A stretch of DNA of 64,000 nt. Origin: Methanocaldococcus bathoardescens. GTDB lineage: Archaea; AGJL01; Methanococci; Methanococcales; Methanocaldococcaceae. A program made the position numbers and the translations under genes. Positions within the stretch are counted from its first letter, which is position 1. Every line of letters starts with the position of its first letter. Positions 14,306 through 59,744 of this stretch are shown one piece after another. Location: positions 434,001 through 498,000 of the forward strand of contig NZ_CP009149.1 of the NCBI RefSeq assembly GCF_000739065.1, given 5' to 3'. Under the pieces are notes generated by a model that was not told where the DNA came from, made no database searches, and saw nothing but the letters and a program-made list of their open reading frames with translations.

Positions 14306-15967
14306 ATGATAAGTGATAGAGTAAAAAAAGGAATAAAAAGAGCACCAAATAGAAGTTTATTAAAAGCTTGTGGATACACAGATGAAGAGATAGACAGACC
14401 TTTTATTGGAGTTGTTAATAGCTTTACAGAAGTAGTTCCGGGACATATTCATTTAAAAGATATTGCTGAGGCGGTTAAAAAAGGAATATACGCAAATGGA
14501 GGAACAGCTTTTGAATTCAACACAATGGCAATATGTGATGGAATAGCAATGGGTCATGAGGGGATGAGATACTCTCTTCCATCAAGAGAGATTATTGCAG
14601 ATACTGTAGAAAGTATGGCAAAAGCTCATGGATTTGATGGTTTAGTTTTAATTCCAAGCTGTGATAAAATAGTTCCTGGAATGATAATGGGGGCTATAAG
14701 AACTGGATTACCATTTATAGTTGTTACTGGAGGGCCAATGTTCCCTGGAGAGTTAAGAGGAAAGAAGTACGATTTAATTAGTGTATTTGAGGGAGTTGGG
14801 GCTTGTGCAGCTGGAAAAATTACAGAGGAAGAGCTTAAAGAGATAGAAAATATTGCTTGCCCTGGAGCTGGTAGTTGTGCAGGTTTATTTACCGCAAATA
14901 CAATGGCTTGCCTAACTGAAGCTATGGGATTGTCTCTTCCTTACTGTGCAACAGCACACGCAACAACTGCAGAGAAAATAAGGATAGCAAAGAAAAGTGG
15001 GATGAGAATAGTTGATTTAGTTAGAAATAATATAACCCCAGATAAGATTTTAACTAAAGAGGCATTTGAAAATGCTATATTAGTAGATTTAGCTTTAGGG
15101 GGTTCAACAAACACAACCTTACATATCCCAGCAATAGCAAATGAAATAAAGCCAAAATTTGTAACATTAGACGATTTTGATAGGTTATCAGATGAAGTTC
15201 CACACATAGCTTCTTTAAGACCTGGAGGAGAGCACTTTATAATTGATTTACATAGAGCTGGAGGTATTCCTGCTGTATTAAAAGTTTTGGAAGAGAAGGT
15301 AAGAAAAGAATGCCTAACAGTTAGTGGAAAAACAGTTGGAGAGATTATTAAAGAAGTTAAATATATTGACCATAATATTATCAGATCAATAGACAATCCA
15401 GTCCATGAAACAGCTGGTTTGAGAATATTGAAGGGAAGTTTAGCACCTAATGGAGCAGTAGTTAAAATTGGAGCTGTGAATCCAAAGATGTATAAACATG
15501 AAGGACCTGCAAGAGTGTTTGATAGTGAAGAAGAGGCAGTTGATGCAATATTGGGAGGAGATATTGAGAGAGGAGATGTTGTAGTTATTAGATATGAAGG
15601 GCCTGCAGGAGGGCCAGGGATGAGAGAGATGTTGGCTCCAACCTCAGCAATATGTGGAATGGGGTTGGATGATTCAGTGGCATTAATTACAGATGGTAGA
15701 TTCAGTGGAGGTAGTAGAGGGCCTTGTATTGGACACGTTTCACCAGAAGCAATGGCTGGAGGGCCGATAGCGATAGTTGAGGATGGAGATATAATTAAAA
15801 TAGATATGATAAACAAAAGATTAGATTTAGCTTTAGATGAAGAAGAGATTAAAGAAAGATTAGCTAAATGGAAAAAACCTGAACCAAAGGTCAAAAAAGG
15901 TTACTTAGCGAGATATGCTAAGCTTGTAACATCAGCTGATGAAGGGGCTGTGTTAAGATACGATTAA
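14306..15967 (+). CDS. ilvD: Dihydroxy-acid dehydratase
   Basis: 553 residues, the normal length. Iron-sulfur ligand motifs are visible: [25 protein letters not shown], and the C-terminal [23 protein letters not shown]. It makes 2-oxo acids for valine, isoleucine and coenzyme A synthesis. The start ATG 14306 follows GAGGGATAAA; the longest frame starts 30 bp earlier inside vapC. The stop codon TAA (15965-15967) lies within the terminal repeat of the palindromic element at 15964-16062. Confidence 0.95.
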
Positions 15968-55443: not shown

Positions 55444-55839
55444 ATGATTAAAGTATTAGCAATAGACATATCTGGAAGACATCATGAAAATGATATATTT
55501 TTTAGAGTCTATGCTGGGGTTTTGGTGGAGATTCAGGCAGATAGAATTGTACATGTAGAAAAAATAGATGTTATGGTTAAAGAAGAAGAAACTCAGAAAT
55601 TGAGAGATATTATTAAAGAGGTTAAAGAACTTATTGAGAAGATTGGGGAAGAATTTGATTACATTTTATGTGAGAGGGGAGAATTTTTTAACTTGTCCAA
55701 GGATATTATTTCAGCAGTTTTGAATAAAGAAGTGATATTTCCAAAGACAAGAGGAGAGTTGGAAGCGATAAATATAGCCCACCATGTTTCTTACTCTGTT
55801 AGAAAGTTGCTCATGGGAGAAAGGAGAAAATTTTATTAA
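55444..55839 (+). CDS. DUF2209-like protein, 131 residues
   Basis: It starts MIKVLAIDISGRHHENDIFFR, which suggests an RNase H-like first strand with Asp, and has DYILCERGEFFNLSKDIISAV and ELEAINIAHHVSYSVRKLLMGERR. The Asp-Glu-Glu-His residues could be catalytic. It appears to be the DUF2209 family from methanogens; no function is known. GAGGTGAG precedes ATG 55444. Confidence 0.65.
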   Translation: MIKVLAIDISGRHHENDIFFRVYAGVLVEIQADRIVHVEKIDVMVKEEETQKLRDIIKEVKELIEKIGEEFDYILCERGEFFNLSKDIISAVLNKEVIFPKTRGELEAINIAHHVSYSVRKLLMGERRKFY

Positions 55840-55861
55840 CACGATTCTTATATAAACCAAC

Positions 55862-58651
55862 TTAAATTCCATATTTCTCCTCTCGTTTTTTAAATGCCTC
55901 TTCTCCACCTTCTAAAAGTTTAGTAATATCTCTCCGTATTTGTTCATTTTCGATTGAACCCCATCTATATGATATTTTGTTATTTTTAAATTCTGCAACT
56001 ATCACTTGCTCGGCATCTGTATTAACTACTAAATTTGCATTATGTGTAGAAATTATAATCTGCCTCTTTTTCTTTGCTTCTCTGAAAGCATTTACTAAAG
56101 TTTCATAAATAAATTTGTTATCCAAATTATCCTCTGGTTGATCTATTATTAAAGGATGATCTCCTTCAGCCAAGAATATCTTTAATAAAACTGTGCCTTT
56201 TTGACCTATAGAAAGTTTGTCCATAGGAGTTCCGTTAAAGAAAATTTCAGTGCTAAGTGAGAAATAATTTCCAAATACCCAATTGTAGAAATCCAAATTT
56301 GTTCTTGTTTTCTTTAAAAACTGCTTAAATTTAAAAGCTTCATTAATATAATCTTCGATCTTAGATGGTAATTTTTCAATATCATCAGAAGATATAATCT
56401 CATATAACTTTTCTGCTAAGCTTGATATTTGCTCTAGAGTAACTTTTCTACCATCAAGAATATCTTCCCCTACGTCTTCAAATTTACTTCGATCAAAGAA
56501 TATATTTGACTTGAAATCTATATTGTTTAAAATATCGTCTTTTCCATTTGAGAATACTTCTATAATTTTTTTATAAACATCTTTTAATTCGACATGTTTT
56601 TGGATAAATTTTATGTATTTGTCTTTTCTTTCTTCATCTAATTTTTTAATTTTCTCTTTCTTTTCGTTAATTTCTTTTAATTTATCGTCTAGTAGTTCTA
56701 TTTCATCATTTATATTGTTTATTTCATTAAGTAAGGTATCATGTTCTTTTTCTATACCAAGCAATTTGTTGAGGTCTTCTTTTATAGAATTTATCTGACT
56801 TACAACATTATTAATTTCAGATTGGACAATCCCCATAGTTTCGTTTATTTTATCTAAATATGACTTGAGATCTATATGTGAAATATTTACAGGTATGTTT
56901 AATTCTCTAAAGTTAGAATTTAGCTTATCAATCTCAGAATTTATCACTAAAAAGTTTTCAATTTTATCTTGAAGTTTCAATAGATCATTTTTAATTGTTT
57001 CTAACTTAGAATGTCTTGATCTTAAGGCAGCTTCTTCCTTTCTAAGATTTTTAACTTTATTTTCAGAGTCTTCTCCAATCTTTTTTATAATATCTTGAAG
57101 TTTATTTTCTTTATCCTTCAATTCTCCGATTTTAATGCTCTTTTTATTTTCAATATCTTTGACTTTTTCAGGATCAGTGTCTATTTCCAATTTGTAAATC
57201 TCAGAATTAAGATCTTCAATATCTTTTTTGAGTATATCTATTTCTTCTAATAGTTTTTCAAATTTTTGTTTATATTCAGAGTCCATTACATCCTTATTAC
57301 TAAAGATTATTTCCTTTATTTTTTCATGGAGTTTTTCTCTGTCCTCACTATATTCTTCAATTTTCCCTTGAGGGAGATATGTTATTTTTGAGTGTTGGAA
57401 AAATTTTTCTTCAATAAGTTTCTTAGAGAAGTTTTCCACATCATCTCCAATAAAAGATATTTCAACAGTTAGGTCTGGTTTTTGTTCTTCTATTCTTTGA
57501 ACAAACGAATTTTTATCTATACCACTCCTTTTACACCTATCTTCAAAACAATTAGCTATTAAATCAAGTAGTGCTGTTTTTCCACTACCTTTACCACCTA
57601 TAACTGTAACTAAGTTGGGATTTAATGGAATTTCCAGTTCTTCAATTTCTAACTCATCACTTATCTTAGAATTTGATATTTTTATGGATGATAATGTATA
57701 GATACTTTTTCTGGGTTCTGGATTATCTTCTTGAATTCTTACCCTTTCTTCTGGCTCATAGATGATCTGTTTTAAACCTTCAAATGTAGGATCAGCTTTT
57801 ATCCAACAGAATCGATTATTATCGGGCTTACAAAGTTTATCAAATTTATGAGCATCAGAACCATGTATGCAAGGTTTTAATGAGCCAAATTCATTAATAA
57901 AATCTTTTGGGTTTTTATGTTTTTTACCTAAAGCCCAATCTCTTGTATTTGGATTTGCAGAGAAAATTGCATGAGATTTTACAAGAAGTTCTTTTCGAGT
58001 AAGATGATCTTGTCCATCCCAATCCATTAAACACCATCTTTCTTCAGGCAAGACAAGTAAATACTTCCCACCAAAAATAGATTCTTTCTCTTTTAAAACT
58101 TTTATTATTTCATCAAGAGAAACCGTGATGTTCATACATCCTACAAAATAATCAGAATAATTTTTAAACTTATCATGTTGTTTTTTTAATATTCGTCCAA
58201 TTTCTTCAATATTTCTTCGAGTAAGTTTTCTAACTTCCCCATTAGGGGTTTTAATATGTAACTCCTCTAAAAATTCCTTCTCAATTATTTCAGGATCAAT
58301 TTCGTTACTAAATATAACATGATAATTCAATCTTTTAGGTTGTTCATCTTTTCTACTTGAAAGAAATTTATCCAATCTAAATTCAATATTTGGAAGTATC
58401 AAATAAAAATTTTGTAACCTTCCTTTTTTCCTATATTCAAGTATTTTCTTATATCCTTCAATGGAAAAATAGTCAGTAATCCCAATCACAGCAACATCTT
58501 GGATCTTTTCTAACTCATCAATATATTTTTCCCATATATCCCCATTGTATTTTTCTTTTTCTTCTTCATCTGAAAATCTAAAATTATGGTAATAAGATGC
58601 TGGAGTATGAACATGCAAATCCCATTTTCTCCATTCTGATCCTCTGTTCAT
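55862..58651 (-). CDS. TrlF-type PHP-domain SMC-like ATPase, probable mobile defence gene
   Basis: 929 residues. The PHP domain (1-290) has HVH at 13-15, VIGITDYFS and GSDAHKFDKL, all metal ligands expected of a phosphoesterase. The ATPase follows: Walker A IGGKGSGKTALLD (about 345-357), Q-loop TYLPQGKIEEY, a 250-residue coiled coil (about 430-690), signature LSIGQKG (about 815), Walker B PLIIDQPEDNLD and switch His in ISTHNANLV. TrlF-like proteins are associated with restriction-modification loci. The gene has 15 GATC sites, which look very rare in the rest of the window, suggesting horizontal transfer. The DNA or RNA target is unknown. Confidence 0.85.
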   Translation of the reverse strand: MNRGSEWRKWDLHVHTPASYYHNFRFSDEEEKEKYNGDIWEKYIDELEKIQDVAVIGITDYFSIEGYKKILEYRKKGRLQNFYLILPNIEFRLDKFLSSRKDEQPKRLNYHVIFSNEIDPEIIEKEFLEELHIKTPNGEVRKLTRRNIEEIGRILKKQHDKFKNYSDYFVGCMNITVSLDEIIKVLKEKESIFGGKYLLVLPEERWCLMDWDGQDHLTRKELLVKSHAIFSANPNTRDWALGKKHKNPKDFINEFGSLKPCIHGSDAHKFDKLCKPDNNRFCWIKADPTFEGLKQIIYEPEERVRIQEDNPEPRKSIYTLSSIKISNSKISDELEIEELEIPLNPNLVTVIGGKGSGKTALLDLIANCFEDRCKRSGIDKNSFVQRIEEQKPDLTVEISFIGDDVENFSKKLIEEKFFQHSKITYLPQGKIEEYSEDREKLHEKIKEIIFSNKDVMDSEYKQKFEKLLEEIDILKKDIEDLNSEIYKLEIDTDPEKVKDIENKKSIKIGELKDKENKLQDIIKKIGEDSENKVKNLRKEEAALRSRHSKLETIKNDLLKLQDKIENFLVINSEIDKLNSNFRELNIPVNISHIDLKSYLDKINETMGIVQSEINNVVSQINSIKEDLNKLLGIEKEHDTLLNEINNINDEIELLDDKLKEINEKKEKIKKLDEERKDKYIKFIQKHVELKDVYKKIIEVFSNGKDDILNNIDFKSNIFFDRSKFEDVGEDILDGRKVTLEQISSLAEKLYEIISSDDIEKLPSKIEDYINEAFKFKQFLKKTRTNLDFYNWVFGNYFSLSTEIFFNGTPMDKLSIGQKGTVLLKIFLAEGDHPLIIDQPEDNLDNKFIYETLVNAFREAKKKRQIIISTHNANLVVNTDAEQVIVAEFKNNKISYRWGSIENEQIRRDITKLLEGGEEAFKKREEKYGI

Positions 58652-58823
58652 TATGATTCCCCCACATATTTTATAAACATAATATTGTTGGGTATCAACA
58701 TAAATTTATTACAATGAGTGTTTATATTAATTTCTTAACATATCATAAATAACCTTAATATACCATCATAGATACATAACATAAACAAAAAAATTATCTT
58801 AATGATGGTCTTGGTGATTCTAA

Positions 58824-59744
58824 ATGTATGAGATAGTTAGATACGAAGGAGGGGTTTATAAAAACAATATTTTCAAAGAATGGATTGAGGATATTGGTGG
58901 GTTTGTTATTCAAGAGCATGTTATGCAGTTAGATGTTTATATGACATTAGCTATTCCTCAAAATGAGTTGGAGAATATTAAAGAGGAGGCTAAAAAATAT
59001 AAAGGTAAGATTATAGAGACCCCATTAGCAGGAACTGAGATAGCTGTTGTAGCTCCAAGTTTATCAAGACATCACCTCCCACACACAGCATGTGATATTT
59101 CAGAGTATTTAAGAAGATTTGGAGCTAAACCAAATATGATTGGATTGGCGAGAGGGGTTGGGAAAGATATAGCTCAATTAAGAGAGAAAGAAAAAAGATT
59201 GATAGAAGAGCACGACTTAGCAGTTTATGTAATGGGTAATTTTGAAGCATGTATTAAAGATAAAACTCATTTATTTGATGTAGATATTCCAGTTGTGGTT
59301 ACTGGAGGTCCTGAAAAAATAGATATTCCTTATCCATACGTTGGAAATCTTGGGAGGAGGAGCCATAGGTTAAGACATGGAGAAGAGATTAGAGCCTTAA
59401 GAAAGATGGTTGATGTAATAACAGAACTTATAAATGAGAGAAGAAGAGAATTATCTTACGACCCGCCAATTGTTCCGCCAGTAGTTGTTAAAGATGAAAT
59501 TGAGAAACAAGTTGAGGAAGTGTATTCAATTCTATCACCAATGCCTATTGTTACACAGTTAGATGGGTTGAGAGTTAAATTGGATTATGATAAATATGTA
59601 GATAAGATTAGAGAGGTTAAAGTTAAGAACTATAAATTAGAGGATATAGCGGATATTAAAAGAAGTGTAATGAAAAACTATATATTAATAAAAATAAAAC
59701 CAAAATCAGAAGTAGAGTTTGAAATGCATAAAAATAAAGCTTAA
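58824..59744 (+). CDS. mmp7: Methanogenesis marker protein 7
   Basis: 306 residues, with VRYEGGVYKNNIFKEWIED and VVAPSLSRHHLPHTACDISEYLRRFGAKPNMIGLARGVGKD, then IPVVVTGGPEKIDIPYPYVGNLGRRSHRLR. I recognise it as methanogenesis marker 7, found only in organisms with MCR; its role may be in MCR maturation. It has no obvious redox or ATP motif. GGTGATTCTAA precedes the start. The gene order 58824-63981 (marker 7, unknown, tfrB, exchanger, U32) is also the order I recall from M. jannaschii. Confidence 0.8.
   Translation: MYEIVRYEGGVYKNNIFKEWIEDIGGFVIQEHVMQLDVYMTLAIPQNELENIKEEAKKYKGKIIETPLAGTEIAVVAPSLSRHHLPHTACDISEYLRRFGAKPNMIGLARGVGKDIAQLREKEKRLIEEHDLAVYVMGNFEACIKDKTHLFDVDIPVVVTGGPEKIDIPYPYVGNLGRRSHRLRHGEEIRALRKMVDVITELINERRRELSYDPPIVPPVVVKDEIEKQVEEVYSILSPMPIVTQLDGLRVKLDYDKYVDKIREVKVKNYKLEDIADIKRSVMKNYILIKIKPKSEVEFEMHKNKA

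What the first reader, a model, noticed from the sequence alone, without database searches (positions are those of the whole stretch)
55862..58651. PHP-SMC ATPase (TrlF type) with GATC-rich, foreign composition
I counted 15 GATC sites in 2.8 kb, while reading elsewhere I noticed only isolated ones (for example near 15385 and 26644). Methanocaldococcus is known to have GATC-specific restriction (MjaIII in M. jannaschii), which explains avoidance. A gene full of GATC is therefore likely a recent arrival. The protein couples a metal-dependent PHP nuclease-like domain to a Rad50-like ATPase, a plan fit for antiviral defence.
Basis: partly seen in the sequence, partly recalled or inferred. Interest (0 to 1): 0.72.

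Follow-up and report, generated by a model that had tools for sequence, protein, structure and literature searches.

The report
Recently acquired antiviral-type gene in Methanocaldococcus
A heat-loving methane-making archaeon has picked up a single gene of a known antiviral type, and the newcomer stands out because it still carries the four-letter DNA word GATC that the rest of the genome has almost completely purged.

Summary
The ORF at 55862-58651 (-) carries 15 of the window's 17 GATC sites. The 1,607,556-bp genome has only 192 (about 4,325 expected); 1,496 of 1,611 ORFs have none. GATC here is normal rather than enriched: 15 observed, 11-12 expected from the gene's own codons. GC and codon usage are only mildly unusual.

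The gene is a lone 2.9-kb insertion. It is absent from 13 congeners, and 10 of them show the two flanking genes 55-167 bp apart. The protein is a full-length TrlF-family member: a PHP nuclease domain (fold and metal ligands confirmed) fused to an intact Rad50/SMC-like ATPase with a long coiled coil. Antiviral function is inferred: relatives lie on conjugative plasmids, beside Gabija, and inside a type I R-M operon.

This genome has neither the MjaIII nuclease nor its methylase, so MjaIII does not explain its GATC avoidance.

New: the nearest relatives are low-GC, frameshifted copies in two Archaeoglobaceae (one fits Geoglobus ahangari). They match at 78-100% except across the core of the PHP domain (about 30%), which was exchanged, apparently in the Archaeoglobaceae lineage.

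Verdict: real, recent horizontal transfer of a known gene family; moderately interesting.

The parts
55862..58651 (-). TrlF-family gene, 929 aa, intact
   Evidence: ORF; NCBIfam NF045780 TrlF_fam_ATP 618 bits, cut-off 350, profile 1-944 of 944
57731..58651 (-). PHP metal-dependent nuclease domain (aa 1-307)
   Evidence: AlphaFold model of aa 1-330, pTM 0.86; best solved matches are PHP proteins RNase AM and Pol III alpha; ligand-type residues H13, H15, D60, E90, H111, D266, H268 invariant in A1
58607..58615 (-). PHP motif HVH (H13, H15)
   Evidence: invariant columns
57848..57856 (-). PHP motif DAH (D266, H268)
   Evidence: invariant D and H
57878..58378 (-). Core of the PHP domain (aa 92-258) that was exchanged relative to the nearest homologues
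   Evidence: No DNA homology to the Archaeoglobaceae copies here although both sides are 76-82% identical; protein about 30% against 78-100% on either side
57572..57598 (-). Walker A (GGKGSGKTA, aa 352-360)
   Evidence: sequence; G352, G357, K358 nearly invariant
56546..57280 (-). Predicted coiled coil (aa 458-702)
   Evidence: AlphaFold model, long helices
56201..56215 (-). ABC signature LSIGQ (aa 813-817)
   Evidence: S814, G816 nearly invariant
56129..56152 (-). Walker B LIIDQPED (aa 834-841)
   Evidence: P833, D837-E840 nearly invariant
56140..58641 (.). Span of the 15 GATC sites
55840..58823 (.). Intergenic interval holding the insertion (2,984 bp here, 55-167 bp in 10 congeners)
55444..55839 (+). 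Left flanking gene, DUF2209 (PF09974)
   Evidence: present in 12 of the 13 other congeners
58824..59744 (+). Right flanking gene, conserved methanogen protein (probably methanogenesis marker protein 7, from memory)
   Evidence: present in all 13 other congeners at 87-97% identity

Best explanation
A single-gene TrlF-family defence system that this lineage acquired recently by horizontal transfer, inserted cleanly between two conserved genes. Shown here: family, fold, intact motifs, empty site in relatives, and no trace of the genome's GATC purge. Inferred mechanism: the Rad50/SMC-like ATPase head and coiled coil sense an invader's nucleic-acid end or structure together with the cell's nucleotide state, and license the PHP domain to degrade nucleic acid as a metal-dependent exonuclease, much as reported for the PHP-ATPase Ppl. 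The gene keeps a normal GATC load because it came from a source that does not avoid GATC and has not been in this genome long enough, or under the relevant pressure, to lose the sites.
For: Family NF045780 618 bits over the full length. PHP fold. SMC/Rad50 fold and sequence similarity to AriA, Rad50 and PtuA. Catalytic motifs conserved. 15 GATC against 0.31 expected at the genome rate. Absent in 13 congeners; empty site in 10. Of 394 genomes nearest the host, only three others have a comparably strong match. Nearest relatives are in two Archaeoglobaceae genomes, as low-GC islands. Backbone dN/dS 0.04-0.12, i.e. selected as protein. Defence neighbours of relatives: Gabija, type I R-M operon, LmuB. 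Ppl mechanism: PMC12904381.
Against: No defence gene adjoins it in this genome. No activity of any TrlF protein was found in the papers held. Ppl is only a distant relative: 154 bits against a cut-off of 1000. The end-sensing and exonuclease steps are analogy. The donor is unknown: the closest copies found are 75-82% identical in DNA with saturated synonymous change. With no GATC enzyme identified here, the GATC load cannot be turned into a date.
Confidence: 0.62

Rival explanations
1. Same gene, same recent acquisition, but the PHP domain acts on RNA (tRNA or other host RNA) and the system works by abortive infection rather than by degrading viral DNA.
For: The closest solved PHP structure is RNase AM; the closest solved ATPases by sequence include AriA of PARIS and PtuA of retron-Septu. 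AriB of PARIS is a tRNA nuclease and Septu is reported to cleave tRNA (abstracts of PMC12409363 and PMC13096335).
Against: The only PHP-ATPase defence protein with a described mechanism, Ppl, is an ssDNA 3'-5' exonuclease (PMC12904381); Pol III alpha PHP is also among the matches.
Confidence: 0.27
2. A gene resident in the genus that was lost by all other species, with GATC kept by constraint on its coding sequence.
For: The protein is under purifying selection.
Against: Only 3 of 15 GATC sites are conserved in the G231 copy, so the protein does not require them. Synonymous shuffles show they could have been removed as in other genes. It would need loss in 13 congeners with similarly short gaps left.
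Confidence: 0.03
3. A DNA repair or chromosome-maintenance ATPase carried by mobile elements, not a defence gene.
For: Rad50/SMC resemblance; one GenBank record names a homologue 'DNA repair ATPase'.
Against: Patchy distribution, plasmid carriage, and neighbours that are defence systems. Rad50/SMC-like proteins of these genomes are separate genes in the family search.
Confidence: 0.08

Closest known systems
TrlF family AAA-like ATPase (NCBIfam NF045780)
   Same: Full-length match over the cut-off, same order PHP - ATPase - coiled coil - ATPase, same motifs, same single-gene layout
   Different: In a hyperthermophilic methanogen chromosome; no mobile element or defence neighbour next to it; ATPase half closest to two Archaeoglobaceae copies whose PHP core is of another type
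Ppl anti-phage protein (NF042955; PADLOC Ppl)
   Same: PHP nuclease joined to an ATPase in a single gene
   Different: Only distant similarity (154 bits, cut-off 1000); mechanism of Ppl not shown for TrlF
PARIS AriA, PtuA, Rad50/SMC, JetC (Wadjet)
   Same: ATPase head with coiled coil, sequence and fold similarity
   Different: Those work with a separate nuclease subunit; here the nuclease is fused at the N-terminus
RNase AM (YciV) and Pol III alpha PHP domain
   Same: PHP fold and metal ligands
   Different: No ATPase fused; TrlF has a longer variable core between E90 and D266
MjaIII restriction-modification (GATC) of M. jannaschii
   Same: Sequence (GATC) that the genome avoids
   Different: Neither nuclease nor methylase is present in this genome

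Membership tests
TrlF family (NF045780) | Full-length profile match above the curated cut-off | tested here: met
   618.4 bits, cut-off 350, profile 1-944/944
TrlF family (NF045780) | N-terminal PHP fold with metal ligands | tested here: met
   pTM 0.86 model matches PHP structures; H13, H15, D60, E90, H111, D266, H268 invariant. Pfam PHP itself does not score the protein
TrlF family (NF045780) | Rad50/SMC-like ATPase with Walker A, signature and Walker B | tested here: met
TrlF family (NF045780) | Antiviral or anti-plasmid activity | not testable with these tools
   needs experiment; only neighbourhood of relatives
Ppl | Profile match above the curated cut-off | tested here: not met
   154 bits, cut-off 1000
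Ppl | NTP-gated ssDNA 3'-5' exonuclease | not testable with these tools
   described for Ppl in PMC12904381
PARIS (AriA/AriB) | ATPase paired with a separate nuclease gene | tested here: not met
   neighbours are DUF2209 and a conserved methanogen gene
MjaIII (GATC) R-M in this genome | DpnII-family nuclease gene | tested here: not met
   PF04556 search of the genome empty
MjaIII (GATC) R-M in this genome | Adenine methylase of the D12 class | tested here: not met
   Only a 56-residue partial PF02086 match in a 924-aa DUF1156 protein; no MjaIII methylase by tblastn and the locus is empty

The most novel reading that the evidence does not exclude
The core of the PHP domain (aa 92-258) is an exchangeable specificity cassette. 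Among the vent archaeal copies the ATPase and both conserved edges of the PHP domain are nearly the same protein, while the core between them is of two different types, as if target recognition by TrlF is re-tooled by swapping this segment, comparable to the exchange of recognition domains in restriction systems.
Probability: 0.3. Interest if true: 0.65.

Novelty: new member of a known kind. Interest (0 to 1): 0.45.

Why it matters
It extends a little-studied defence-type family to a hyperthermophilic methanogen and shows that a site almost purged from a genome can act as a tracer of incoming DNA: apart from the rRNA operons, the strongest GATC clusters in this genome are this gene, a sugar-nucleotide/glycan gene cluster, a type III R-M locus and one metallo-beta-lactamase-fold gene. 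It gives a concrete pair of natural alleles (same ATPase, different PHP core) for testing what the nuclease part recognises. It also exposes an open question: this genome avoids GATC as strongly as M. jannaschii but lacks the enzyme normally held responsible.

Tried and rejected
MjaIII as cause of avoidance in this genome: rejected. The type II pair at C1:334081-336335 as the GATC agent: rejected, since it is missing in a strongly GATC-avoiding genome (G001, absent) and intact in G006 at o/e 0.29. Excess of GATC beyond expectation: rejected. Target-site duplications or repeats at the insertion edges: none convincing. A viral or plasmid vehicle for close relatives: none; IMG/VR scans with this protein and with the Archaeoglobaceae protein found nothing close, plasmid and phage homologues are about 30% identical. 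A swapped core as a feature of this gene: the opposite direction is better supported, because its core resembles those of a Planctomycetota fragment and of G576, G564 and G450, while the Archaeoglobaceae core differs. The AU test against one clade for the core is only moderately strong (p 0.035); the identity contrast carries the claim. Literature on 'TrlF' or 'PHP-SMC' defence: no relevant paper.

Full report
Where it lies. The window is C1:434001-498000 of a complete 1,607,556-bp genome. Its length fits M. bathoardescens JH146, and the lengths of G008 (1,664,970), G001, G006, G012 and G011 fit M. jannaschii, FS406-22, M. fervens, M. vulcanius and M. infernus; these names are from memory and the tools give none.

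The observation. GATC occurs 17 times in the window, 15 times in this one gene. In the genome it occurs 192 times against 4,325 expected; without the main clusters o/e is 0.025. Of 1,611 ORFs, 1,496 have none and the runner-up has 6. The gene's 15 sites equal what its protein and codons would give by chance (11-12), so it is a gene without avoidance, not one enriched. CTAG, the other purged word (91 against 3,302), is present twice in the gene against 5-6 expected, so the source avoids CTAG weakly if at all.

GATC as tracer. Besides two rRNA operons, whose sequence is constrained, the densest GATC clusters are the TrlF gene, a sugar-nucleotide/glycan gene cluster (C1:74.5-84.4k), a type III R-M locus (630.5-637.9k) and a single metallo-beta-lactamase-fold gene. 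Of 328 genes long enough to judge, 8 have GATC at half the expected number or more: the TrlF gene, four genes of the glycan cluster, the metallo-beta-lactamase-fold gene, and two weak cases with 2 sites each that were not examined (C1:872496-873386 and C1:247801-248748).

Cause of avoidance. The genus varies: o/e 0.04-0.05 in G008 and G001, 0.27-0.41 in G006, G013 and G009, 0.62-0.69 in G011 and G002, 0.96 in G012 (two stretches each). The DpnII/MjaIII nuclease is found above cut-off only in G008. The present genome has neither the nuclease nor the methylase, and the two genes flanking the MjaIII locus in G008 are 2 bp apart here. The archaeal R-M survey (PMC10609329) does not resolve this.

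Insertion. The protein has no comparable match in the 13 other genomes of the genus. The left flank (DUF2209) and right flank are conserved; in ten relatives they are neighbours with 55-167 bp between matches, here 2,984 bp apart (alignment). In G002 and G011 the two flanks lie far apart and in G003 the left flank was not found, so they are uninformative. No target duplication was recognised.

What it encodes. NF045780 TrlF, 618 bits over the whole profile. The PHP part modelled alone gives pTM 0.86 and matches RNase AM and the Pol III alpha PHP region. Invariant residues include H13, H15, D60, E90, H111, D266 and H268. The whole-protein model is weaker (pLDDT 72.9, pTM 0.43) but places a long coiled coil at aa 458-702 between the ATPase halves and matches SMC, JetC and Rad50. 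By profile, the closest solved ATPases include AriA, Rad50 and PtuA. Pfam's PHP family does not score it, but the TrlF profile matches real PHP proteins of these genomes.

Relatives. Among 394 genomes nearest the host, three others match at E 1e-60 or better, and 21 of 394 in the phylum of G231. The closest are G231, whose length of 1,770,093 bp is exactly that of 'Geoglobus ahangari' from the Guaymas Basin (PMC4600277), and G427, another genus of the same family. Both are broken by frameshifts, though sequencing error cannot be excluded, and both are low-GC islands (0.35 in flanks of 0.50-0.55; 0.34 in flanks of 0.37-0.43). DNA identity with the window gene is 75-82% but confined to gene nt 9-275 and about 774 to just past the stop; there is no flank homology. 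Backbone dN/dS is 0.04-0.12 with saturated dS. Only 3 of 15 GATC sites are shared with G231.

Exchanged PHP core. Against both Archaeoglobaceae copies the window protein is 78-90% identical for aa 1-80 and 82-100% for aa 281-440, but 21-33% for aa 121-240, where those two are 77-79% identical to each other. The window core is nearer to a Planctomycetota fragment (47% against 27% for G427) and to G576, G564 and G450 (43/30/39% against 34/19/26%). Trees: backbone clade of the three at 100/99.9; for the core, holding them together is disfavoured at p 0.035. The simplest reading is that the core was replaced in the Archaeoglobaceae lineage, using the conserved blocks LPNIEFR and KPCIxGSDAH as edges.

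Function. TrlF genes occur on conjugative plasmids. One is directly beside GajA/GajB of Gabija, one lies between type I R-M subunit genes of G381, one is near LmuB, and one is near a gene matching a PD-Lambda-5 model. This supports defence by association. The mechanism is borrowed from Ppl (PHP exonuclease released by nucleotide depletion and 3' ends, PMC12904381) and is unproven for TrlF; the RNA-cleaving rival stands at about one in four.

Verdict. A recently arrived TrlF gene, correctly spotted. A new member of a known family, with two additions worth follow-up: the exchanged PHP core among vent archaea, and strong GATC avoidance without MjaIII.

Noticed in passing
Genome G000 as a whole; compare L118-L137: GATC avoidance (o/e 0.025 outside clusters) without any MjaIII-type nuclease or methylase; G001 shows the same (0.05). 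Cause unexplained.
   Followed up: partly
G000 C1:74500-84400 (L005-L006): A sugar-nucleotide/glycan gene cluster with 24 GATC (o/e about 0.9), another apparent recent arrival.
   Followed up: partly
G000 C1:630545-637880 (L030): Type III R-M locus (Mod, transglutaminase-like protein, ResIII helicase, small gene) with 9 GATC, probably also recent.
   Followed up: partly
G000 C1:1104015-1105259 (L054:6015-7259): Single metallo-beta-lactamase-fold protein with 4 GATC (as expected by chance) and weak similarity to LmuA and RT-associated MBL defence proteins.
   Followed up: partly
L193:6573-9363 (G231) and L209:8449-11227 (G427): TrlF copies in Archaeoglobaceae with frameshifts and a PHP core of another type; one break in G231 lies in an A-run, so sequencing error or phase variation is possible.
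   Followed up: partly
L192:2962-13843 (G381): TrlF gene embedded in a type I R-M operon between the restriction and specificity subunit genes.
   Followed up: partly
L126:7634-10048 (G008): MjaIII locus carries a third ORF (199 aa) between methylase and nuclease; the flanking genes are directly adjacent in G000, so the system looks inserted in M. jannaschii.
   Followed up: partly
L118-L137: GATC avoidance is graded across the genus (0.04 to 0.96), as if decaying after loss of the pressure in some species.
   Followed up: no
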